DNA from: an uncultured Ignavibacteria bacterium
GTDB lineage: Bacteria > Bacteroidota > Ignavibacteria > Kapaibacteriales > UBA2268
Direction of reading: 5' to 3'
Length of the DNA: 64,000 nt
Assembly (NCBI GenBank): GCA_903862655.1
Contig: CAIOZA010000050.1
Location: 1 to 64,000, forward strand
Below are positions 18,576-31,583 of this stretch, piece by piece; position 1 is the first letter of the stretch; each line of letters starts with the position of its first letter. The notes below the pieces were generated by a model. It was not told the origin of the DNA. It did no database searches and saw nothing but the letters and a program-made list of their open reading frames with translations. Position numbers and translations under genes: made by a program.

Positions 18576-19096
18576 GGGAATCGTTATTATAATAATAAGT
18601 TTAAAAATTTTTGTAAATTAATAAATAGACGAATGAATATCAAAAGGGATGGCTGAATTTATTAAACTTTACTATTTCTATTAAGATATCACCCCTACCG
18701 GGGTTCTAAATTTAATAAATTCATTTACTGGGAGTAAAGATTACTTTCTTCAAAAAATTGGAAGCTTTCCCCGTAGGGGTTTAATCCTAATAGAAAACGT
18801 TATCCCACAAAATAAAAAGCTCCGTAGGAGCGATATAGAGATTGAAACAACTTAGATGTCGCCCCTACGGTGCTTTGAGTCCCTTTTGTAGGATATTTTC
18901 TATTAATATATCACCCCTTCCGGGGTTTTGTAATTTCTACTAATATCCCGCATCTACGAGGCTTTTAGCATAATTATAAAAAATATAATTTGTATCATTC
19001 TTCTAATATATATAGATTTGCTTTTTCCCGTAGGGAAAAGATATTAATAGAAAAACGTATCTCACTACTTTAAAAACTCCGTAGGAGTGACATATT
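18576..19096. repeat. REP-like palindrome cluster upstream of the RAYT gene
   Basis: At least eight short stem-loops built on CCCCTACSGGGG/CTCCGTAGGAG cores lie here: ACCCCtaccGGGGT (18691-18704), CCCCGTAGGGG (18769-18779), GCTCCGTAGGAGC (18819-18831), CGCCCCTACGG (18860-18870), CTTTTTCCCGTAGGGAAAAG (19021-19040) and ACTCCGTAGGAGT (19076-19088), plus weaker ones. They are spaced by AT-rich DNA containing TTTCTATTAAT/ATTAATAGAAAA words. They are arranged on both sides of a RAYT transposase, the usual REP/RAYT relationship. Confidence 0.75.
18618..18684 (+). repeat. ~65-bp direct repeat, copy 1
   Basis: The stretch beginning ATTAATAAATAGACGAATGA is repeated at 21641-21708 with only a few changes. 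In both places it is followed, directly or after the RAYT unit, by a REP palindrome and then the start region of the methyltransferase gene. This marks a segmental duplication. Confidence 0.8.
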
Positions 19097-19582
19097 ATGG
19101 CTCACACTTACTCTCAAATGTATATTCACTGTGTATTTTCTGTAAAGGGAAGAGAAAATATTATCAGTAAAAAGTGGAATGAGGAACTGTATAAATACAT
19201 TTGCGGAATTGTGAATAACAATCAACAAAAAATCTATTCAATCAATGGAATGCCTGACCATTTGCATATTCTAATTAGCATTAGACCGGATGTTTCATTT
19301 TCTCATTTAATTAGAGAGATAAAAGCTAGTTCTTCAAAATGGATCAATACGAATAAATTAGTCAAAGGAAAATTCACTTGGCAGGAAGGATTCAGTGCAT
19401 TCTCAGTATCTCATTCTCAGTTGGATAAGGTTATAGCATATATCAATAATCAGGAAATCCATCACCAAACAAAAACATTTCAGCAGGAATATATTGAATT
19501 TTTAAAATCGCATAAAATTGAATATGATGAGAGATATGTTTTTGATTTACAAGAGGGAGATGTCGCCCCTACGGGGCTTTGA
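19097..19582 (+). CDS. REP-associated tyrosine transposase (RAYT, IS200/IS605 Y1 family)
   Basis: 161 residues. It opens HTYSQMYIHCVFSVKGRENI, has the metal-binding HUH motif in MPDHLHILISI, and the catalytic Tyr in DKVIAYINNQEIHH. This is a single-strand transposase of the Y1 family. No second IS605 gene is present and the gene is bracketed by REP palindromes, which identifies it as a RAYT and not a free IS200. The last residues (GDVAPTGL) are encoded by a downstream REP, so the stop codon comes from the repeat. The copy appears intact. Confidence 0.9.
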   Translation: MAHTYSQMYIHCVFSVKGRENIISKKWNEELYKYICGIVNNNQQKIYSINGMPDHLHILISIRPDVSFSHLIREIKASSSKWINTNKLVKGKFTWQEGFSAFSVSHSQLDKVIAYINNQEIHHQTKTFQQEYIEFLKSHKIEYDERYVFDLQEGDVAPTGL

Positions 19583-19636
19583 TGTTCTTTTTTTGGGATT
19601 TTACTATTAAGATATCACCCCTGCCGGGGTTTGTAA

Positions 19637-19752
19637 TTTATTAAGGAGCACATGCAATGAAACAATGGTACGAGACACTTTTTGAGGATTATGCCGAAAG
19701 TTATGATAACGAGGTTTTTACTCAGGGGACTATCGGCGAATGTGACTTTATC
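19637..19752 (+). pseudogene. Truncated 5' copy of the SAM methyltransferase gene
   Basis: The leader (TTTATTAAGGAGCACATGCA) and the first 32 codons (MKQWYETLFEDYAESYDNEV onward) match the intact gene at 21815 with only silent or minor base changes. Homology stops after codon 32 at 19752, where the uracil-DNA-glycosylase-like gene begins. The leader sequence upstream (TTTGGGATTTTACTATTAA and the REP) is also duplicated. It is a clear gene fragment left by duplication and insertion. Confidence 0.9.
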
Positions 19753-19757
19753 TATTT

Positions 19758-20456
19758 ATGACTGAAATTGAGAAATTATACCAAGAAGCTGAGATGCTTG
19801 AATATCCTGATTCAATGATAAAAGTGAGAGGAGAAATTCCTAGAAGAGCATTTTTTCCTGGAGGAAAGGGAACATTTGATAATTCAGATCAAATATCGGA
19901 CAAATCAATAATGATTCTTGGTCAAGACTTCGATAGTGAAAGAGGTTTCAAAAAATCATTGCATCAGGGTGAAGAGGATATACAAAAGAACAGTACTTGG
20001 CGTAATCTATTGATTTATTTAAATGAAGCAGGCATTAACCCTTGTATTTGTTTCTTTACTAATGCAATTATGGGAATTAGAAAAGGTGAAAGTTCAATAG
20101 GAAAATCACCAGCTTTCAAAGACAAATCGTTTATAAATTCTTGTCAAGATTTATTTTTATTTCAATTAGCACTACAACAGCCCAAAGTTATTTTAGTTCT
20201 TGGATTAAGAGTAGCTGAATTCTTATCTGCTTCATCTACAGAACTTAATGTGTGGTCCAAGATCAAGAATTTTACATCAATTGACAATCTAAACCATCAA
20301 AAAATTGGTAATGTTACTTTTAAGAATAATGTATCATCTAGTCTAGTTCTTCTAAATCATCCTTCTTGTAGACCTTGGGATTTAGATAGAAGAACTTATT
20401 CAGGATACAAAGGCAAAGATGCAATAATTCATTTATTAAGGAGCACCTGCAATTAA
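19758..20456 (+). CDS. Uracil-DNA glycosylase superfamily protein
   Basis: 232 residues with the family's first motif altered to IMILGQDFDSERG (from GQDPY) and the closing motif LVLLNHPSCRPW (HPS type). These are the catalytic and leucine-loop positions of UDG-fold enzymes. The middle has CFFTNAIMGIRKG. It starts six bases after the truncated methyltransferase copy. Its last residues (LLRSTCN) are encoded by another copy of the methyltransferase leader (20432-20453), so both ends of the gene touch repeats. It may be base-excision repair or a defence-type UDG; substrate unknown. Much more AT-rich than the methyltransferase. Confidence 0.7.
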   Translation: MTEIEKLYQEAEMLEYPDSMIKVRGEIPRRAFFPGGKGTFDNSDQISDKSIMILGQDFDSERGFKKSLHQGEEDIQKNSTWRNLLIYLNEAGINPCICFFTNAIMGIRKGESSIGKSPAFKDKSFINSCQDLFLFQLALQQPKVILVLGLRVAEFLSASSTELNVWSKIKNFTSIDNLNHQKIGNVTFKNNVSSSLVLLNHPSCRPWDLDRRTYSGYKGKDAIIHLLRSTCN

Positions 20457-20463
20457 ACATTGC
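20432..20463 (+). repeat. Third copy of the methyltransferase leader
   Basis: TTTATTAAGGAGCACCTGCAAT at 20432-20453 is identical over 22 bases to 21795-21816, the ribosome-binding site and start of the intact methyltransferase. Similarity continues for a few bases (AAACA.TG) with the ATG start mutated to ATT. It forms the 3' end of the UDG-like gene. Confidence 0.8.
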
Positions 20464-20659
20464 TTTCTTCTCTAAAATATAAATTTCAAAATTGCGTTTT
20501 GATGCATATAAACTTATTATTAAACAGCTGGTAGAATGTGACTTATACTGAAATTGCAGAAGAGATACAGATGAACTACTAAAAATGCTGGGGTAATAAT
20601 GATCGAGATAGCTTTCTATCGTGCTTTTATCAAAGCATAAGCCTGTAATTCCCGGTATA
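20464..20659. other. Short intergenic stretch with a decayed repeat of the UDG-gene start
   Basis: No gene is visible. GAATGTGACTTATACTGAAATTGCAGAA near 20533 resembles GAATGTGACTTTATC...TGACTGAAATTGAGAA at 19738-19775 with a ~9-base gap, so a degraded copy of the left UDG junction may lie here. Confidence 0.35.
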
Positions 20660-21610
20660 TCAATAAACTCCTAAATCAGAGCCGCATTCAACATTTCCAT
20701 TATAAGAATTCTTAATTTCTTGCAGTAAATTTTCGGGAGTTGAACCCCAGGATAATACATGATATAATACTAATTTCTTGGGTTTTACTTTATTTGCGAG
20801 AACTGCCAGTTCATAAGTTGATGTATGCGAAAGTTTGTGATATTTTTGCCATTCCGGTTTTTTTGTCAAAAATCCCTTATATGAGTAAACTTCATGAATC
20901 AACAAGTCACATCCCTTACTAGCAGCTAAAATTCCTTCACATGGTTTGCAGTCCCCCGAAATGGTAATTACTCTGTCATGTGTTACAAATTTAAGTGCAT
21001 AAGCAGATTTCCAGGTACCATGCTCTACACGGTAAGCATAAACAATAACGTTAGAATCCCTGTAAACTAAGCCTTCATCAAATTCCAAGGCTTCGATCTT
21101 ATAACCTTCTTTATCTATAGGTTCGAGACCATCAAGCCTGTTGTCAATGTCGTCTTTATATGCTTCGAGAATTTTAGAAGTCAGGTTTTTCGTTCCTTTC
21201 GGCCCATAAACAAAGAAAGGCTTATCTCTGCCCAATACCCAGCTGTTTAATAACAAGTCGGGCAAACCTGTTGTATGATCAGAATGTAAGTGAGTTAGAA
21301 ATAAAGTTCTGACTTTATCAATCTTGAGTGCTTTGATACCATTATTATATGAAGCACTAATCCTTCGGACAATTCCAGGACCTGCATCGACTAAATAAGC
21401 TTGCCCATTTACTATAACGGCAACAGCAGGACCTGACCTCTCAGGAGTCGGATTTGGCGTACCTGTCCCTAACAATACAACTCTTGTTTTAGTTGAATCA
21501 ATTATTTCTTTATTATTGATATTATCATTTTTGATTTTATCATGTTCTTTTGTACATGAAACAAATACCAGTAAAATAGAAAGAAGAAATATAATTTTTT
21601 TTATAATCAT
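20660..21610 (-). CDS. MBL-fold metallo-hydrolase, lipoprotein
   Basis: 316 residues with a lipoprotein signal (IIFLLSILLVFVSC). The core is of the arylsulfatase/RNase Z-like branch: VLLGTGTPNPTPERSGPAVA, then LVDAGPGIVRR, the metal motif FLTHLHSDHTTGLPDLLLNS (HxHxDH), ISGDCKPCEGI, and a C-terminal HLSHTSTYELAVLA-like segment with KLVLYHVLSWG. Membrane-anchored in the periplasm or at the outer membrane. The exported location argues for a small-molecule hydrolase and against tRNA processing. It sits between two copies of the methyltransferase leader. Confidence 0.85.
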   Translation of the reverse strand: MIIKKIIFLLSILLVFVSCTKEHDKIKNDNINNKEIIDSTKTRVVLLGTGTPNPTPERSGPAVAVIVNGQAYLVDAGPGIVRRISASYNNGIKALKIDKVRTLFLTHLHSDHTTGLPDLLLNSWVLGRDKPFFVYGPKGTKNLTSKILEAYKDDIDNRLDGLEPIDKEGYKIEALEFDEGLVYRDSNVIVYAYRVEHGTWKSAYALKFVTHDRVITISGDCKPCEGILAASKGCDLLIHEVYSYKGFLTKKPEWQKYHKLSHTSTYELAVLANKVKPKKLVLYHVLSWGSTPENLLQEIKNSYNGNVECGSDLGVY

Positions 21611-21640
21611 TTTTTGATTTATATTTAAAATTCTATTAAT

Positions 21641-21814
21641 TTAATAAATAGACGAATGAATATCAAAAGGGTTGGCTGATTTTATTGAATTTTACTATTT
21701 CTATTAATATAATTAATATCTCGCCCCTACGGGGCTTTGATGTTCTTTATTTGGGATTTTACTATTAATATATCACCCCTGCCGGGGTTTGTAATTTATT
21801 AAGGAGCACCTGCA
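21641..21814 (+). repeat. Direct repeat copy 2 plus REP palindromes before the methyltransferase
   Basis: 21641-21708 is the second copy of the 65-bp repeat at 18618. It is followed by TCGCCCCTACGGGGCTTTGA, the TTTGGGATTTTACTATTAA spacer, TATCACCCCTGCCGGGGTTT, and the TTTATTAAGGAGCACCTGCA leader. The same order occurs at 19565-19656 after the RAYT gene. Here there is no RAYT, so this looks like the version without the transposon. Confidence 0.8.
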
Positions 21815-22576
21815 ATGAAACAATGGTACGAGACACTTTTTGAGGATTATGCCGAAAGCTACGATAATGAGGTTTTTACTCAGGGGACTATCGGCGAATG
21901 TGATTTTATCGAAGCGGAAATCGGGCGGAACAAGGCTTTGAGGATACTCGATGTGGGATGCGGCACGGGCAGACATTCTATCGAATTGACAAAGCGGGGT
22001 TACAGCATGACGGGCATTGATCTCTCGGACTCACAGCTTGCTAATGCTCAGCAAAAGGCAGAGGCTCAGGGACTAAATATTGCCTTTCAGAAACATGATG
22101 CACGGAACCTGCCGTTCCGCGAGGAATTCGATCTGGCAATCATGCTATGCGAGGGTGGATTCCCGCTGATGGAAACCGACGAGATGAATTTCGAAATTCT
22201 GAACAGTGTTAGCCGTTCGCTCAAAAGTAAGGGAAAGATGATCTTTACTACTCTCAACGGATTGTTCCCGCTGTATCATTCGGTGGAGCAATTCCTCGAC
22301 ACAGCAAAGGGAGAGGGTAACGCCACATACAGAAGTAACACGTTCGATCTGATGACATTCCGCGACCACAACATCACGTCGATTGAAGATGACCACGGCA
22401 ACACAAGGGAACTGGTCTGCAACGAGAGATATTATGTACCGTCCGAGATAACGTGGCTGCTGAAATCACTGGGATTCAGGCAGGTGGATATATTCGGAGC
22501 CAAGCTGGGAGCTTTCTCGCGGAATGACAAGCTCACAACCGAAGATTTTGAAATGCTGGTGATAGCTGATAAATGA
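21815..22576 (+). CDS. Class I SAM-dependent methyltransferase
   Basis: 253 residues. Motif I is LRILDVGCGTGRHSIELTKR, with the acidic end of strand 2 in MTGIDLS and motif IV-like FDLAIMLCEGGFPL. It is a small-molecule methyltransferase of the UbiE/Methyltransf_25 type; the substrate cannot be told. A strong ribosome-binding site (AAGGAG) precedes the ATG. It is GC-rich like guaA, so probably a core gene. Its leader and first codons occur as partial copies at 19637 and 20432. Confidence 0.85.
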   Translation: MKQWYETLFEDYAESYDNEVFTQGTIGECDFIEAEIGRNKALRILDVGCGTGRHSIELTKRGYSMTGIDLSDSQLANAQQKAEAQGLNIAFQKHDARNLPFREEFDLAIMLCEGGFPLMETDEMNFEILNSVSRSLKSKGKMIFTTLNGLFPLYHSVEQFLDTAKGEGNATYRSNTFDLMTFRDHNITSIEDDHGNTRELVCNERYYVPSEITWLLKSLGFRQVDIFGAKLGAFSRNDKLTTEDFEMLVIADK

Positions 22577-25689: not shown

Positions 25690-25786
25690 AAAATATAACA
25701 ATCTCCTATATCTGTAATCCTGTTTGACACTTATTTCGCTAACTAATAGACTAGCTAATTATACCTCAGATTATAAGTACATTCGA
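25690..25786 (+). pseudogene. Decayed partial copy of the tRNA-Thr locus
   Basis: ATCTGTAATCCTGTTTGACA at about 25709-25728 resembles TTTGTAATCCTATTTGACG just before the tRNA. The next ~25 bases (GCTAACTAATAGACTAGCTAATT) follow the tRNA D arm and anticodon stem (GCTCAGCTGGTAGAGCAGCTGATT) with scattered changes. No T arm or acceptor 3' half can be drawn, so it is not functional. Together with the true tRNA it brackets the fic gene. Confidence 0.45.
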
Positions 25787-25837
25787 CGAAAATGTAATCT
25801 GGTTTACAATTCATTTTTTCCAGAGTATTATTATTTT

Positions 25838-26494
25838 TTGAATATATTACTGAAATATATATTTGTTTTGATTTTTCTCACAATGATGTATTCATGTAAC
25901 AACATGAACGTATCAGTGTGTATTCCCAATATCAATCCCGATTCTATCAGAACGCAGATGCTTCCTCTGTCTGTTGGCAATTACTGGGTTTATGAGGATA
26001 GCAATATCTCCGGAGGCAAGGATACCGTTAAGTTCGAAATTACCGGCTTGCAGAATATCTACTATTACAAATTGGGTAATAAGAGAAAAATGATGGGTTA
26101 CAGAATTAAGCAATCATCATCCAAACCCAATCTCAGCAGAATTGATTTTTACTATGTCAAATGCGAATCTCAGACACAGCTGGTCTATTCGGAGGAGGAC
26201 GATCCTAATAATATAACCGGCTTCTCCGACGTTTTATCCGAGAATCCCGAAACAGCTCAGATAGATACATCGAACCAGTACATCCGGTTTGAAGGAACAG
26301 AAAATATTGACACCAGGTTTGGCAATCTGCAATGCTACGTGATGGAGAAAATCCCTCATTCCAAGAAGGAGCTTATCACATCCCACAATAGATCATACTA
26401 TCACAAAGGAATAGGTCTTGTAAAAGTTCATTTCTTATCTCAGGACAAAATCTTCAGCGAACGCAATCTGATAAAATACGTGGTGAAGAAATAG
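25838..26494 (+). CDS. Putative lipoprotein, paralog 1
   Basis: The ORF is open from 25724, but its first part is the decayed tRNA region. A TTG at 25838 gives a good lipoprotein signal (MNILLKYIFVLIFLTMMYSC). The mature part begins with a segment shared with the next gene: IPNINPDSIRTQMLPLSVGN followed by YWVYEDSN. The rest is beta-rich with no known catalytic motif. It is a tandem paralog of 26621-27292; the family is common in this bacterial group as lipoproteins of unknown role. Confidence 0.7.
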   Translation: MNILLKYIFVLIFLTMMYSCNNMNVSVCIPNINPDSIRTQMLPLSVGNYWVYEDSNISGGKDTVKFEITGLQNIYYYKLGNKRKMMGYRIKQSSSKPNLSRIDFYYVKCESQTQLVYSEEDDPNNITGFSDVLSENPETAQIDTSNQYIRFEGTENIDTRFGNLQCYVMEKIPHSKKELITSHNRSYYHKGIGLVKVHFLSQDKIFSERNLIKYVVKK

Positions 26495-26620
26495 GGATAT
26501 CTGACTCCAAGTTTCTATCATCACTAAATAATCTTCTAAATTTATTTTCTTTATATTTCTAATATTTCCTTATATTGTCGGATTACAATATTATATATTT
26601 AATATTTATTCGGGGCATCT

Positions 26621-27292
26621 ATGAAGTATTTTCTAATATCTCTATCTTTGCTTCTTTGTTACTCATGCTCTAATCCTATAAACTGGTACACTGCAAAGAT
26701 ACCAACAATACATCCTGATTCAATCCGAACACAAATGCTCCCTGTTTCGGTGGGGAATTACTGGACTTACGAAATCAATTATATTCAAGAAGGGATTAAA
26801 GACACTTTCGAAGTTAAGGTTCTGTCATTAGATACCGTTCACGTATATGTAAACAATAGAGACACAACTACATTAGCTTATAAGCTTAATTGGAATAAGA
26901 ATCTTAGCTCGGAAAAAAATACTAAGTACTTTTATTATTTTAAATCCGAAACACAGACACAAGTTACACAGTCAAGAGAACCTGAACCCAAGACAATTAA
27001 ATGGTATTATGAGATAATTTATGAAGAACCAGGTATAAATATGATTGATCCGGATAATCCAGACAGAAAATGGGTTGGAAAGAGATTTATTAATACAAAA
27101 TATGGGAAAAAATATTGCTATTATATGGAGAGCACTATTAATGATTATATTTCTAAAAGGCGGGAAGATGACTTGGTTTATCAGATTTGTACTTACTATT
27201 TAAAAGGTGTTGGCGAAATAAGAGAGGAATGTTATAATTCAAAAGGAAAAGTAATTATTGAAAAAGATTTGATTGATTATAAAGTAAAGTAG
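26621..27292 (+). CDS. Putative lipoprotein, paralog 2
   Basis: 223 residues with a lipoprotein signal (MKYFLISLSLLLCYSCSN). The opening IPTIHPDSIRTQMLPVSVGN and YWTYEIN matches paralog 1, and both share the FYYFK.ESQTQ stretch and a C-terminal YYLKGVGEIR-type line. The two are diverged duplicates, with paralog 1 more GC-rich. Function unknown. Confidence 0.75.
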   Translation: MKYFLISLSLLLCYSCSNPINWYTAKIPTIHPDSIRTQMLPVSVGNYWTYEINYIQEGIKDTFEVKVLSLDTVHVYVNNRDTTTLAYKLNWNKNLSSEKNTKYFYYFKSETQTQVTQSREPEPKTIKWYYEIIYEEPGINMIDPDNPDRKWVGKRFINTKYGKKYCYYMESTINDYISKRREDDLVYQICTYYLKGVGEIREECYNSKGKVIIEKDLIDYKVK

Positions 27293-27321
27293 GGAATAAT
27301 CATCTTCATTTGTAAAATTAT

Positions 27322-28140
27322 TTGAAAGCAATTCTAATGGCTCTTTTTCTTTTATTAATGCTTACATATTATACTGAGACCACATTTGGGGATTATGATT
27401 CACTTTATGGAATGATGACTGTATATGGAGACTATCGTCAATGTCAGGTATTTCAGACAAACTTTAAATCAGACACTTTGGACATTAAATCCAGAAAATT
27501 AAAAGCCTCAATTAAATATGATTCTAGTGGAAAAAAAGTTGAGCTTATTATTTTTGATATTGATGGGTCTAATCATGAATCAAGAGACATATATATCTAT
27601 AATAAAAATAAATTAACGAAAATTATAAATTATTATGTTGACCAAAGCAAACCAGGTACAGTCAGGAAATTTGAGTATGATAGTCTTGGTCAACAAACCA
27701 GAGAAATAATTCTTTGGCGTGATAGTACGATACTCGATGATAAAATAATAACTTATGTTCGAACAGAAAATCAACTTGAAAAAACAACGACTGGGTCCAG
27801 CTATGATGATGGTACCGAAATAATAAAGTATGATAAATTTGGGAAAAAAATAGAATCTTCATTTAACACTTCACTTTCACACGGGAAATTTGTGTGTGAA
27901 TATAACGATAAAAACAAGCTAATAAAAGAAGTTCTTTATTCATGGGGAACAGACATTACCGGTACACACAGTCTACAATATGATAATAATGGTAACTGCA
28001 TATTTGAGAGTTATATCACACCCAATGAATACTACATTCATAAATTATGGTATGATGAAGCAGGAAACGTAACGAAAATTTTAAATTTAAACAAAGATTC
28101 AAAGCCTAGGTTTATTCTGGAATTTGTCTATAGCAAGTAA
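27322..28140 (+). CDS. Secreted YD-repeat-like protein
   Basis: 272 residues starting from a TTG at 27322 or the ATG at 27337. A hydrophobic N-terminus is followed by several ~25-residue lines such as KFEYDSLGQQTREIILW, IIKYDKFGKKIESSF, SLQYDNNGNCIFESYI and LWYDEAGNVTKILNL. These are the YD/RHS-type strand repeats. It is too short for a full RHS shell. It probably belongs with the two lipoproteins upstream. The stop codon directly abuts the DUF1697 3'-end copy at 28142. Confidence 0.65.
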   Translation: MKAILMALFLLLMLTYYTETTFGDYDSLYGMMTVYGDYRQCQVFQTNFKSDTLDIKSRKLKASIKYDSSGKKVELIIFDIDGSNHESRDIYIYNKNKLTKIINYYVDQSKPGTVRKFEYDSLGQQTREIILWRDSTILDDKIITYVRTENQLEKTTTGSSYDDGTEIIKYDKFGKKIESSFNTSLSHGKFVCEYNDKNKLIKEVLYSWGTDITGTHSLQYDNNGNCIFESYITPNEYYIHKLWYDEAGNVTKILNLNKDSKPRFILEFVYSK

Positions 28141-28141
28141 A

Positions 28142-28210
28142 TTATTTTCCTTCTCCCATCCTCACCAGCTCCAGCACAGTTTTCCAGTTTCGTGTGGTGG
28201 CGTGGGTTTT
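28142..28210 (-). repeat. Distal copy of the DUF1697 gene 3' end
   Basis: On the minus strand this reads ATTRNWKTVLELVRMGEGK and stop, the conserved C-terminus of DUF1697 proteins; the intact gene nearby ends ATTRNWKTVLELVRMGSIG. It matches 30339-30407 very closely and 31029-31097 closely. It starts exactly at the stop codon of the restriction enzyme gene. It has the same orientation as the intact gene. Confidence 0.85.
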
Positions 28211-29192
28211 AATATGTACCAAGGAACTTATGTCCATTGAAATGGATTAAATGGTCAGGATTATCAGCTATCCAGACTTCAGTTTCCCATGCAATTTCCA
28301 TTATCCATTTTTTAAAAATTACTTTGGTGAGAAAAGCTGTCACAAAAATTAATTCTGCTTTACAATCCTTTAAAAGTTTTTTTAATTCTAAAACTCTAAT
28401 TTCACTCATTGGTCCAGAGCTATGAACAGCTTCGATCAAAAATAACCAATTATTATTTTTGCTAAATGCTATAATATCTGGCAACTCATCATGTGAAAGC
28501 TCAAAAAAGCCAATATTCTGTAATTCATTTAACTCAATATGTAGCATTTTATTTGAAGTATCACCTATGTACAAAACTTCACAATCACTACCAAACCGAG
28601 GTAAAAAATGTTCGATTATTTGTTTTTGTAGGAGATTGTGTTCCCCATAAGAAAATATAAGTGGTTTACCATTAGGTAGTTTTACAGGTATTTTATCAAT
28701 ATCTCGTTTCCTAGCTAATTGTTCAGAAAGCGAAGGTCTATTTTCATTGAATTTGTTCAATTCTATCTGCCAATTTTTGGTATTATAATGAATGATTAAA
28801 TTTTTAAAATCAGGATGGATTGAATATCCACGTGTTGGATTATTTGTAGCAGATTTTTTATTGTCGCCACTATTGATTACAATATCTGATAACACAAGTG
28901 TTTTTAAATCTTTACGTCTGATATCATCATAAGATCCAGATGAAATATTTTCTTTGAAATTTAAATTTAGAAAATTTATTATATCCCTTGTTTTTAAATT
29001 CTTATCAGAAATAGCATTTTTCCAACTACCAGTTACTCCAGCAACAGCTAAAAAGCACATTGCTGTGCGTTCTAATCTTCTTTCTGTTGTTTGATCTAAA
29101 GGAATTCCCACACTGAACAAAATGTCAAGTGCCTCATCAATTAATATTTTTATATTATTTGGCTTCTTACTATTTGAAATGTAGTTTTTCAT
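28209..29192 (-). CDS. Type II restriction endonuclease, BsuBI/PstI family
   Basis: 327 residues. The C-terminal half carries the family pattern: IFSYGEHNLLQKQIIEHFLP, a nuclease-like core at ELPDIIAFSKNNNWLFLIEAVHSSGP (D...E-x-V), and FKKWIMEIAWETEVWIADNP with DHLIHFNG. The N-terminal half (FSVGIPLDQTTERRLERTAM onward) fits the BsuBI/PstI N-terminal helical domain. It follows the cytosine methyltransferase by two bases. Prototype BsuBI and PstI cut CTGCAG and pair with adenine methyltransferases, so the site here may differ. The stop codon coincides with the DUF1697 repeat. Confidence 0.85.
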   Translation of the reverse strand: MKNYISNSKKPNNIKILIDEALDILFSVGIPLDQTTERRLERTAMCFLAVAGVTGSWKNAISDKNLKTRDIINFLNLNFKENISSGSYDDIRRKDLKTLVLSDIVINSGDNKKSATNNPTRGYSIHPDFKNLIIHYNTKNWQIELNKFNENRPSLSEQLARKRDIDKIPVKLPNGKPLIFSYGEHNLLQKQIIEHFLPRFGSDCEVLYIGDTSNKMLHIELNELQNIGFFELSHDELPDIIAFSKNNNWLFLIEAVHSSGPMSEIRVLELKKLLKDCKAELIFVTAFLTKVIFKKWIMEIAWETEVWIADNPDHLIHFNGHKFLGTY

Positions 29193-29194
29193 AA

Positions 29195-30232
29195 TTAAAA
29201 CAAAGTAAATTCTTTATTAGCAATCATTTTGTTATCAAGAACTGTTTCAATTGAAAAGATTTCATCCATTTTGTAACAATCTTTTAATGCTAATGCCAGA
29301 TTATAAGCTAAAAGAGGAGGCACTGCATTTCCAATTTGATAAAACTGTTGTGTTTCAGTACCAGAAAATTCGAACCAATCAGGGAAACTTTGCAATCTTG
29401 CTGCCTCTCTTACTAAGATACGTCTTCTTCTTCCATCATGTAATCTTATTCTCTGCATATCACCGGTTGCACCTGCAAGATTTCTACAAGTCAATGTCCG
29501 AGCTGGTCTATTAGGGTATAAGTCTCTAGGATTAATGCAAGATGAAGCGATTTCATAATTTGAAATATATTTATCCATAGATTCAGTGAGGAACTTGCTT
29601 TCAGGTGGAGTTGTATACATTAGATCTCCTATTGCTTCTAAAACTGAAACCTTATTTACCTTTTGTTTGGGGAAAGTAAATTTAGTTCGATGCCCAATTA
29701 CAAATAAACGTTCTCTATTTTGAGGTACACCAAAATTTACGGCATTTATTAGTTTAAAATCAATTACATATCCGAGCTTATGTAGTTCATTAATTATTAA
29801 CTCAAAATACCATTTATTGGAATATAAAAGACCTCTTACATTTTCAAACAAGAAAACTTTTGGTTGAAGTTTTTTAACAGCATCAATAAAGACAGGAAAA
29901 CCATCCCTAGAATCTTTGATTCCTTTTTGATAACCTCCAACACTGAAGGGTTGGCATGGAGGACCTCCGATAATGATTTCAGCTTGAGGATAATCAAAAT
30001 CAAGATCAAGTTTTACAGCATGACAATTACTTCCCAAATTATTGGTATATGTATTCGCTGCAACTTTGTCCATCTCAAAACCAATGGTTTTGTATCCAGC
30101 TGCTTCAAATCCTAAAGATAATCCACCACAACCAGCAAATAAATCAAGTACTAGTTCCTTTTCAGTTGTATTTGGTCTTAAAAAACTATTTATCTGTGTT
30201 ATATAGTCCATAGATTGATTTTTATTATTCAT
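29195..30232 (-). CDS. DNA (cytosine-5-)-methyltransferase
   Basis: 345 residues with the C5-methyltransferase motifs in order: I (LDLFAGCGGLSLGFEAAGY), IV (GGPPCQPFSVGG, catalytic Cys), VI (FLFENVRGLL), VIII (QNRERLFVIG), a target-recognition stretch with RPARTLTCRNLAGATGD, and X (FYQIGNAVPPLLAYNLA). It protects host DNA against the adjacent BsuBI/PstI-family nuclease. Order is methyltransferase first, nuclease second, in one operon. It is AT-rich like other accessory genes here. Confidence 0.95.
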   Translation of the reverse strand: MNNKNQSMDYITQINSFLRPNTTEKELVLDLFAGCGGLSLGFEAAGYKTIGFEMDKVAANTYTNNLGSNCHAVKLDLDFDYPQAEIIIGGPPCQPFSVGGYQKGIKDSRDGFPVFIDAVKKLQPKVFLFENVRGLLYSNKWYFELIINELHKLGYVIDFKLINAVNFGVPQNRERLFVIGHRTKFTFPKQKVNKVSVLEAIGDLMYTTPPESKFLTESMDKYISNYEIASSCINPRDLYPNRPARTLTCRNLAGATGDMQRIRLHDGRRRRILVREAARLQSFPDWFEFSGTETQQFYQIGNAVPPLLAYNLALALKDCYKMDEIFSIETVLDNKMIANKEFTLF

Positions 30233-30338
30233 TTTATTATTTATACTAAATACAATATATCAAAACAAACACAAACTTCTTATCTTTACATCGTGTACAT
30301 CTTAATAATATTGGGATTAGGTTATGCATATTTCTCAT
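30233..30338. other. Short AT-rich upstream region of the R-M operon
   Basis: About 100 bases between the methyltransferase start and the DUF1697 copy; it should hold the R-M promoter. No box is convincing. Confidence 0.3.
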
Positions 30339-30445
30339 TTATTTTCCTTCTCCCATCCTCACCAGCTCCAGTACTGTTTTCCAGTTGCGGGTGGTGGCGC
30401 GGGTTTTGAGATTCCTGCAAAATTTTCCACCAAGGCTTTTAATAT
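30339..30445 (-). repeat. Middle copy of the DUF1697 gene 3' end
   Basis: On the minus strand: GGKFCRNLKTRATTRNWKTV followed by LELVRMGEGK and stop. This is a longer remnant than the distal copy, and its upstream part still aligns with NNNFFESKLNTPATTRNWKT of the intact protein. The nucleotide sequence differs from the intact gene at about one base in eight over the shared part. Confidence 0.8.
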
Positions 30446-30526
30446 ATAACTTGTACAATTATATGGACACAGTTTTTATTCACTATTCAAAATTAGATGA
30501 ATACTCACTTAAAATTTCAATTCCCC

Positions 30527-30973
30527 CTAATAATTGTTATTGATTTCATTTATAATAAAAACTTCAAATTCTTTTACAAAATCAGTAATTTTATTTAATA
30601 TATTATTATAAATGGCTTCATCAATCTCATTAATGATATAATGCATTTCTTCCATATCAAACCATAATCCTGGCCTACCATAATCAGCTCTAATTATCAT
30701 TTTTGTTGTATCCCATTCCATATCTCGTATTTCTGGATAATTAAAATCAATGGACAATACTGGTCCTTCATCATCATTATTTTGATAAGGTTCTAGTAAA
30801 AATACTTCCAACACAAAACCAAGAAATTTGAAATTATATTTATTATTCACTGTATTGATAAAAGAAATATTCTTTTTTATCATATCTTCTGTGTTGGCTT
30901 TAACATCATTAAGCGAAGTTAAAATATCGAATTCTATTCTTTCTTTTAACATAATTATTTTATTATTATTCAT
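30527..30973 (-). CDS. Hypothetical protein in DUF1697-associated cassette
   Basis: 148 residues, acidic, mostly helical at both ends (LKERIEFDILTSLNDVKANT and NEIDEAIYNNILNKITDFVK), with a beta-rich middle (PVLSIDFNYPEIRDMEWDTT). No motif I recognise and no signal peptide. It is the only gene between the intact DUF1697 3' end and the middle copy. By position it may be an immunity or defence-related protein, but nothing in the sequence proves that. Confidence 0.6.
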   Translation of the reverse strand: MNNNKIIMLKERIEFDILTSLNDVKANTEDMIKKNISFINTVNNKYNFKFLGFVLEVFLLEPYQNNDDEGPVLSIDFNYPEIRDMEWDTTKMIIRADYGRPGLWFDMEEMHYIINEIDEAIYNNILNKITDFVKEFEVFIINEINNNY

Positions 30974-31028
30974 TAATTCTCCCTATTAATAATCAGTATC
31001 ATATTAACTCAAACCACATTCATATTAG

Positions 31029-31583
31029 CTATCCAATGCTTCCCATTCTCACCAGCTCCAGCACTGTTTTCCAGTTGCGGGTAGTGGCGGGGGTATTAAG
31101 TTTCGATTCGAAGAAGTTGTTGTTGAGTTTACTATTACCGTAGTTTTTGGGACAGAACAGATATATTGCTTTTTCTATCACCTCGAATTCATCATCGGTT
31201 TTTACTTCATTGCGTATCTTGTCAATCAGTGCTTGTTCCGGCACATCAGCCAGGAATGTTACATAGAGGAAGTTGATGTCTTCATGTCTGTCGTTTACGA
31301 AAGGATTATTCCCGGAGACAGTCTTCATTTCCTCCAGACTCAGCACCAGTACAGGTACATCGAAGCCAAACACATCTGAGATTTTTGAAGTGATAGTTTT
31401 TTCAAGTTCAGAATTTGGAGTTTCCTTGGTTTGGAATATCACATTGCCGCTCTGTATATAGCTTTGCACTGATTGGAAACCGAGATCCTCGTACATTTCC
31501 CGCAGGGCATCCATCTTTATCAGCTTCTGACCACTGACGTTGATTCCACGCAGGATTGAGATATATGTTTGTAGTTTAGGCAA
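31029..31583 (-). CDS. DUF1697 family protein
   Basis: 184 residues. It opens TYISILRGINVSGQKLIKMD, then LGFQSVQSYIQSGNVIFQTK, and ends KLNNNFFESKLNTPATTRNW followed by KTVLELVRMGSIG. These are the N-terminal, middle and C-terminal conserved blocks of DUF1697, a cytosolic family of unknown function. Full length. It lies 12 bases downstream of rfaE2 and could be co-transcribed. Its 3' end is the repeated sequence flanking the R-M and unknown-gene cassettes. Confidence 0.92.
   Translation of the reverse strand: MPKLQTYISILRGINVSGQKLIKMDALREMYEDLGFQSVQSYIQSGNVIFQTKETPNSELEKTITSKISDVFGFDVPVLVLSLEEMKTVSGNNPFVNDRHEDINFLYVTFLADVPEQALIDKIRNEVKTDDEFEVIEKAIYLFCPKNYGNSKLNNNFFESKLNTPATTRNWKTVLELVRMGSIG

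What the first reader, a model, noticed from the sequence alone, without database searches (positions are those of the whole stretch)
28142..31097. Restriction-modification and unknown-gene cassettes stacked on the 3' end of a DUF1697 gene
Seen: ATTRNWKTVLELVRMG-stop, the conserved DUF1697 C-terminus, is encoded three times in the same orientation (intact gene, 30339-30445, 28142-28210). The copies delimit a ~0.6-kb unit (one unknown gene) and a ~2.1-kb unit (C5 methyltransferase plus BsuBI/PstI-type nuclease). The nuclease stop codon coincides with the repeat edge. The copies differ from the intact end, so they came with the inserts. I know of no described element targeting DUF1697 3' ends.
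Basis: partly seen in the sequence, partly recalled or inferred. Interest (0 to 1): 0.88.

Follow-up and report, generated by a model that had tools for sequence, protein, structure and literature searches.

The report
Restriction cassette behind duplicated gene ends
A bacterial gene of unknown function carries two acquired units behind it, a two-gene DNA-cutting defence system and an unknown gene, each closed by a ~75-base copy of that gene's own end; this is a neat, unusually clear case of a known kind of insertion, and it did not recur at about 100 other copies of the gene that were checked.

Summary
The 3' end of the DUF1697 gene (31029-31583, minus strand) recurs in the same orientation at 30339-30414 (76 bp) and 28142-28212 (71 bp). 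The copies enclose an AT-rich orphan gene and a C5-methyltransferase plus BsuBI/PstI-type nuclease pair. Both copies start at nearly the same position in DUF1697 and end at its stop codon. All differences among the three copies in the 16-codon core are synonymous, so they diverged as working gene ends and the insertions are recent. The modules share nothing else: no terminal repeats, no integrase, no attC site.

Best reading: two successive insertions with duplication of the gene end, as described for restriction-modification systems ("long target duplication"), leaving DUF1697 intact. The recombination enzyme is unknown. A dedicated DUF1697-targeting element family is not supported: about 100 other DUF1697 loci, 395 phylum genomes and viral contigs gave no second case. 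The three closest relatives of this enzyme pair lie in integron-type cassette arrays. A distant relative (G581) is flanked by a 93-bp duplication of a neighbouring gene's stop codon and terminator. No same-genus genome was available, so the empty site could not be tested.

The parts
31029..31583 (-). Intact DUF1697 gene (184 aa), C-terminus ATTRNWKTVLELVRMGSIG-stop; host gene whose 3' end is duplicated
   Evidence: PF08002 E 3e-42; only DUF1697 gene in the genome; GC 0.42 like its core-gene neighbours
31029..31104 (-). 3' end segment of the intact gene that is duplicated (about 71-76 bp, up to and including the stop codon)
30527..30973 (-). Orphan gene X (148 aa), cargo of the 614-bp unit; GC 0.235; no family, no convincing homologue
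   Evidence: no Pfam/PADLOC/NCBIfam match; 0 of 196 other class genomes; only E 0.004-0.009 hits in 296 phylum genomes; unreliable fold, pLDDT 38.6
30339..30414 (-). Copy c2 of the DUF1697 3' end (76 bp; ATTRNWKTVLELVRMGEGK-stop)
29195..30232 (-). C5-cytosine DNA methyltransferase (345 aa), cargo of the 2.1-kb unit
   Evidence: PF00145 E 7e-67, TIGR00675
28209..29192 (-). BsuBI/PstI-type restriction endonuclease (327 aa); its stop codon lies in the first bases of copy c1
   Evidence: PF06616 E 1e-62, PF17728 E 1e-30; PADLOC REase_II
28142..28212 (-). Copy c1 of the DUF1697 3' end (71 bp; ATTRNWKTVLELVRMGEGK-stop); its stop codon is 1 bp from the stop of the convergent gene, so it may be the original chromosomal gene end

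Best explanation
Two accessory modules were inserted one after the other at the 3' end of a resident DUF1697 gene. Each insertion left the gene whole and put a ~71-76 bp copy of its end (from a fixed point to the stop codon) on the far side of the cargo. The order is DUF1697 - X - tail - methyltransferase - nuclease - tail. The product has the form of a circle carrying [cargo + DUF1697 tail] recombining into the tail of the resident gene, and equals 'insertion with long target duplication' as described for restriction-modification (RM) systems. Shown: anatomy, edges, synonymous-only divergence, foreign base composition of the cargo. Inferred: order of insertion (RM first, X second), recombination through the tail, recent acquisition from or among related strains with different DUF1697 alleles, and post-segregational killing by the RM pair as the force that keeps it. 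Not known: whether RecA-type homologous recombination or an integrase acting in trans made the joints. The function is ordinary restriction defence; X is unknown.
For: Same left edge (within ~5 nt) and same right edge (stop codon) for both copies. The three cores differ at 3, 5 and 4 sites pairwise, all third-position and synonymous, P about 4e-4 under neutral change, so the fragments are young and the ends diverged as genes. The modules share no sequence other than the tail and have no terminal inverted repeats. Cargo GC is 0.235-0.33 against 0.42-0.47 for DUF1697 and hldE. A parallel in another genome: the RM pair in G581 is flanked by a 93-bp, 96% direct repeat made of a neighbouring gene's stop codon and terminator. 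[quoted passage not shown] PMC3031569). The closest relatives of this RM pair are mobile cassettes in integron-type arrays.
Against: No empty site could be compared: no same-genus genome is held. Long target duplications are described as variable in length, whereas both copies here have the same edges, which hints at a defined site. A plain duplication would be identical at birth, so different alleles need an extra step (allele replacement or cargo-borne tails).
Confidence: 0.5

Rival explanations
1. Site-specific integration: the ~70-bp DUF1697 tail is the attachment core of a tyrosine-integrase system acting in trans. X and the RM pair are integrase-less satellites (like CIMEs) that accreted in tandem, each restoring the gene end with an element-borne tail.
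For: Fixed left edge and right edge at the stop codon for both copies, gene end restored, synonymous differences as known for element-borne gene ends. Tandem accretion is known for att-flanked elements (own knowledge). The genome encodes 19 Phage_integrase-domain matches.
Against: No integrase in either unit; no shared arms outside the tail; no integrase-bearing element at any of 80 other DUF1697 3' ends; no real DUF1697 tails in viral contigs.
Confidence: 0.27
2. Break and repair: each module inserted inside the DUF1697 gene ~70 bp before the stop, cutting off a tail, and an intact DUF1697 allele was later restored upstream by homology-assisted recombination with DNA of another strain.
For: Explains three different alleles, the truncated left edges, and c1 being the native end next to the flanking gene.
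Against: Needs four rare events, two hits at nearly the same base and two illegitimate right-hand joints at the stop codon.
Confidence: 0.1
3. Leftovers of ordinary tandem DUF1697 gene duplication, the bodies of two extra copies having been deleted or replaced by cargo.
For: Tails are in the same orientation as the gene; DUF1697 pseudogenes are common elsewhere.
Against: No tandem DUF1697 pairs in about 100 loci. Both relics would have to be cut at the same base. No residual body sequence upstream of c2 beyond 16 nt (p 0.23).
Confidence: 0.06
4. Integron gene cassettes in which the DUF1697 tail plays the part of attC.
For: Each unit is ORF(s) plus a trailing repeat in one orientation, and the three closest relatives of the RM pair are integron-type cassettes.
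Against: The tail does not fold like attC (z -1.35 to 0.1). No attC-type site anywhere in the window. The genome's integrases are at best 27-30% identical to the IntI of the relative.
Confidence: 0.03

Closest known systems
Restriction-modification systems inserted with long target duplication (Nobusato 2000; Furuta 2010; summarised in PMC3874152 and PMC3031569)
   Same: RM pair without any mobile-element gene, flanked by direct repeats of order 100 bp that are host sequence; host gene kept intact
   Different: Two unrelated modules stacked at the same point with the same repeat edges; repeats diverged only at synonymous sites; one module is not RM
Integrative elements and CIMEs attached at gene 3' ends, with tandem accretion
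   Same: Gene end restored and repeated at each junction; tandem stacking
   Different: No integrase in the units, no shared arms, units of only 0.6 and 2.1 kb, no recurrence at other DUF1697 genes
Integron gene cassettes (the closest relatives of this RM pair in G420, G457 and G418)
   Same: Same methyltransferase plus nuclease pair (60-62% and 54-55% identical), same orientation, repeat behind each unit
   Different: Relatives are bounded by attC-type sites, one array with an integron integrase; here the repeat is a protein-coding gene end without attC features
BsuBI/PstI type II restriction systems
   Same: Nuclease with both BsuBI/PstI Pfam domains
   Different: Partner is a C5-cytosine methyltransferase, whereas M.BsuBI and M.PstI are N6-adenine enzymes (own knowledge), so the recognition sequence cannot be assumed

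Membership tests
RM insertion with long target duplication | RM genes bounded by direct repeats of host sequence, order of 100 bp | tested here: met
   71- and 76-bp copies of the DUF1697 3' end bound the pair
RM insertion with long target duplication | Related genome has the same site without insert and with a single copy of the repeat | not testable with these tools
   No same-genus genome among those held; nearest DUF1697 is 52% identical within the family
RM insertion with long target duplication | Duplication length varies between insertions | tested here: inconclusive
   Both copies have the same edges within about 5 nt; two events only
Integrase-borne element at a gene 3' end (ICE/IME/CIME) | Repeated core that restores the gene's 3' end at each junction | tested here: met
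   Gene open to its stop; tails at both downstream junctions
Integrase-borne element at a gene 3' end (ICE/IME/CIME) | Integrase in the element or in a partner element at the same site | tested here: not met
   None in the units; none in flanks of 80 DUF1697 loci. A trans-acting integrase elsewhere in the genome is not excluded
Integron gene cassette | attC site behind each cassette | tested here: not met
   Structure scan finds attC-type sites in the relatives but none in the window; no significant hairpin in the tails
DUF1697 family | PF08002 match over the curated cut-off | tested here: met
   144.7 bits against a cut-off of 24.4
Type II restriction-modification system | Adjacent methyltransferase and endonuclease of recognised families | tested here: met
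   PF00145 and PF06616/PF17728, PADLOC MTase_II and REase_II
Type II restriction-modification system | Cleavage and protective methylation of one sequence | not testable with these tools
   Needs expression or methylome data

The most novel reading that the evidence does not exclude
The ~75-bp coding 3' end of DUF1697 serves as the recombination site of an integrase-less cassette system: circles of [accessory gene(s) + gene tail] are exchanged between strains and stack behind the gene, a cassette array whose repeat is a functional protein-coding gene end instead of attC.
Probability: 0.07. Interest if true: 0.75.

Novelty: new variant of a known kind. Interest (0 to 1): 0.36.

Why it matters
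It is a clean natural record of how small defence modules without any transposition gene get into chromosomes: they sit at a gene end and leave the gene intact, and here it happened twice at one point with the same edges. Because the duplicated ends differ only at synonymous sites, they date the insertions as recent and act as snapshots of gene alleles. That the closest relatives of the same enzyme pair sit in integron-type cassette arrays suggests that RM pairs pass between cassette arrays and free chromosomal insertions. It does not reveal a new element family: it occurs once in the roughly 100 DUF1697 loci examined at DNA level.

Tried and rejected
DUF1697 tails elsewhere: class scan of 391 genomes and phylum scan of 395. 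Hits with short open frames looked like lone tails but are mostly frameshifted full genes, one of them running off a contig end (L099-L103, L106). L104 (G150) has a real ~110-nt relic, but its stop overlaps the start of an AHSA1-type gene, so I read it as the remains of a DUF1697-AHSA1 unit at the head of a cassette array. I first took its nearness to a BsuBI/PstI nuclease as a parallel and dropped that.

Viral contigs: no relative; five pattern hits were chance on the wrong strand or in unrelated frames.

Integron reading of the window itself: no attC, no fold. My first attC scan was too strict and missed the known arrays; the second found those of L209, L210 and L211. At a looser threshold the scan hits most loci by chance, so single hits there mean nothing.

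Gene-end repeats elsewhere in this genome: in 397 kb sampled the only comparable cases are consecutive genes sharing C-terminal repeats in L147, and the 18.6-21.9 kb repeats of the window.

Synteny around hldE: nearest relatives too distant. Apparent tail copy in L257: not DUF1697. Fold of X: pLDDT 38.6, not searched further.

Full report
What is there. On the minus strand, from right to left: a DUF1697 gene (31583-31029), a 614-bp unit with one orphan gene X (30973-30527), a 76-bp copy of the DUF1697 3' end (c2, 30414-30339), a 2126-bp unit with a C5 methyltransferase (30232-29195) and a BsuBI/PstI-type endonuclease (29192-28209), and a 71-bp copy of the 3' end (c1, 28212-28142). One base beyond c1 lies the stop codon of a convergent gene. 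The repeat is far beyond chance, and these are the only copies in the 4.07-Mb genome. It is the genome's only DUF1697 gene.

Edges. Homology to the intact gene runs 16 nt (c2) or 11 nt (c1) upstream of the ATTRNW motif and stops there; beyond it the match is no better than shuffled sequence (p 0.23). On the other side c1 and c2 are identical up to the stop codon and diverge right after it. Both copies thus cover the same segment of the gene within about 5 nt. The endonuclease stop codon TAA (28209-28211) lies at the very edge of c1.

Divergence. In the 16-codon core the pairwise differences are 3, 5 and 4, all at third positions and all synonymous. About 28% of random changes would be synonymous; six variable sites all synonymous has a probability of about 4e-4. 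The three ends therefore diverged as parts of working genes, and c1 and c2 have been non-coding only briefly. They are samples of different DUF1697 alleles. Whether they arrived with the cargo, or record successive alleles of this lineage, cannot be told apart here. The last codons (GEGK in c1 and c2, GSIG in the intact gene) group c1 with c2.

Cargo. X has GC 0.235, the methyltransferase 0.33, the nuclease 0.29; DUF1697 and hldE have 0.42-0.47. X has no family and no convincing relative, and its predicted fold is unreliable. The two units share no sequence at their ends other than the tail, and have no terminal inverted repeats. Neither carries a recombinase.

Does it recur? In 80 DUF1697 loci from other genomes self-comparison found no duplicated 3' end; the one paralogue tail (L098) is in opposite orientation 10 kb away. 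In 20 more loci, including seven from the same family, there was again none. Profile scans of 391 class and 395 phylum genomes found extra tail copies beside the gene only in this genome. No tyrosine integrase lies in the flanks of the 80 loci, with positive controls working. Viral contigs hold no tail. A DUF1697-specific element family is thus not supported.

Where do the relatives of the RM pair live? In 395 phylum genomes 33 have a related nuclease, but only three (G420, G457, G418) match at more than 50% identity, and these have the same C5-methyltransferase partner (60-62% for the methyltransferase, 54-55% for the nuclease). In all three the pair lies in an array of attC-type repeats. L209 also has an integron integrase (TIGR02249, 433 bits over a cut-off of 265; best PDB match 2a3v, IntI4, E 2.8e-82). 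The window has no attC-type site, and the tails do not fold. A more distant pair in G581 is flanked by a 93-bp, 96% direct repeat that consists of the stop codon and terminator of the neighbouring gene. That is the same architecture as here, at another gene.

Interpretation. The structure is what results if a molecule carrying [cargo + gene tail] recombines into the tail of the resident gene, twice. [quoted passage not shown]). The equal edges of the two copies are a hint towards a defined recombination segment, hence the integrase rival at 0.27. Against it stand the missing integrase, missing arms and missing recurrence. Tandem gene duplication and an integron with a gene end as attC are unlikely for the reasons given under the rivals.

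Limits. No same-genus genome is held, so the empty site was not tested. The genome is a draft in 148 contigs; the repeat copies share at most 33 exact bases, which makes misassembly unlikely but does not exclude it. Only about 10% of the genome was sampled for similar gene-end repeats.

Noticed in passing
L209:7882-11947, L210:9414-13809, L211:9889-14907: The three closest relatives of the window's C5-methyltransferase plus BsuBI/PstI nuclease pair lie in arrays of attC-type repeats; L209 has an integron integrase. This RM pair is thus a cassette in three families of the phylum.
   Followed up: partly
L215:9461-12239 (G581): Another RM pair with a BsuBI/PstI nuclease is flanked by a 93-bp, 96% identical direct repeat made of the stop codon and terminator of the neighbouring gene: a second case of RM insertion at a gene end with duplication.
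   Followed up: partly
L104:9462-18580 (G150): A ~110-nt DUF1697 3' relic overlaps the start of an AHSA1-type gene at the head of an attC-type array with ImmA/IrrE plus PIN-type genes between 389-bp repeats (96%), and an RM pair.
   Followed up: partly
window 18601-21910: Direct repeats of 88-193 nt (19560-19752 and 21718-21910, 96% identical) with CCCC..GGGG hairpin motifs flank two genes; a further repeat-bounded block in the same window.
   Followed up: no
window 29195-30232 with 28209-29192: The BsuBI/PstI-type nuclease is paired with a C5-cytosine methyltransferase; the prototype systems use N6-adenine methyltransferases (own knowledge), so the pair may recognise a different sequence.
   Followed up: no
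window 25724-28140: Two DUF3108-like putative lipoprotein genes and a YD-repeat-like gene on the plus strand, AT-rich, between the Fic gene (SoFic-like) and copy c1; possibly more acquired DNA.
   Followed up: no
L162, L163 (G000 contig C29): Two XerC/D-sized integrases about 4 kb apart, one beside an IS91-like transposase; 43-44% identical to the integrase beside the cassette array of L210.
   Followed up: no
L147:10037-18379 (G000 contig C24): Five consecutive genes share 70-236 bp repeats at their 3' ends, probably a repeated C-terminal sorting domain.
   Followed up: no
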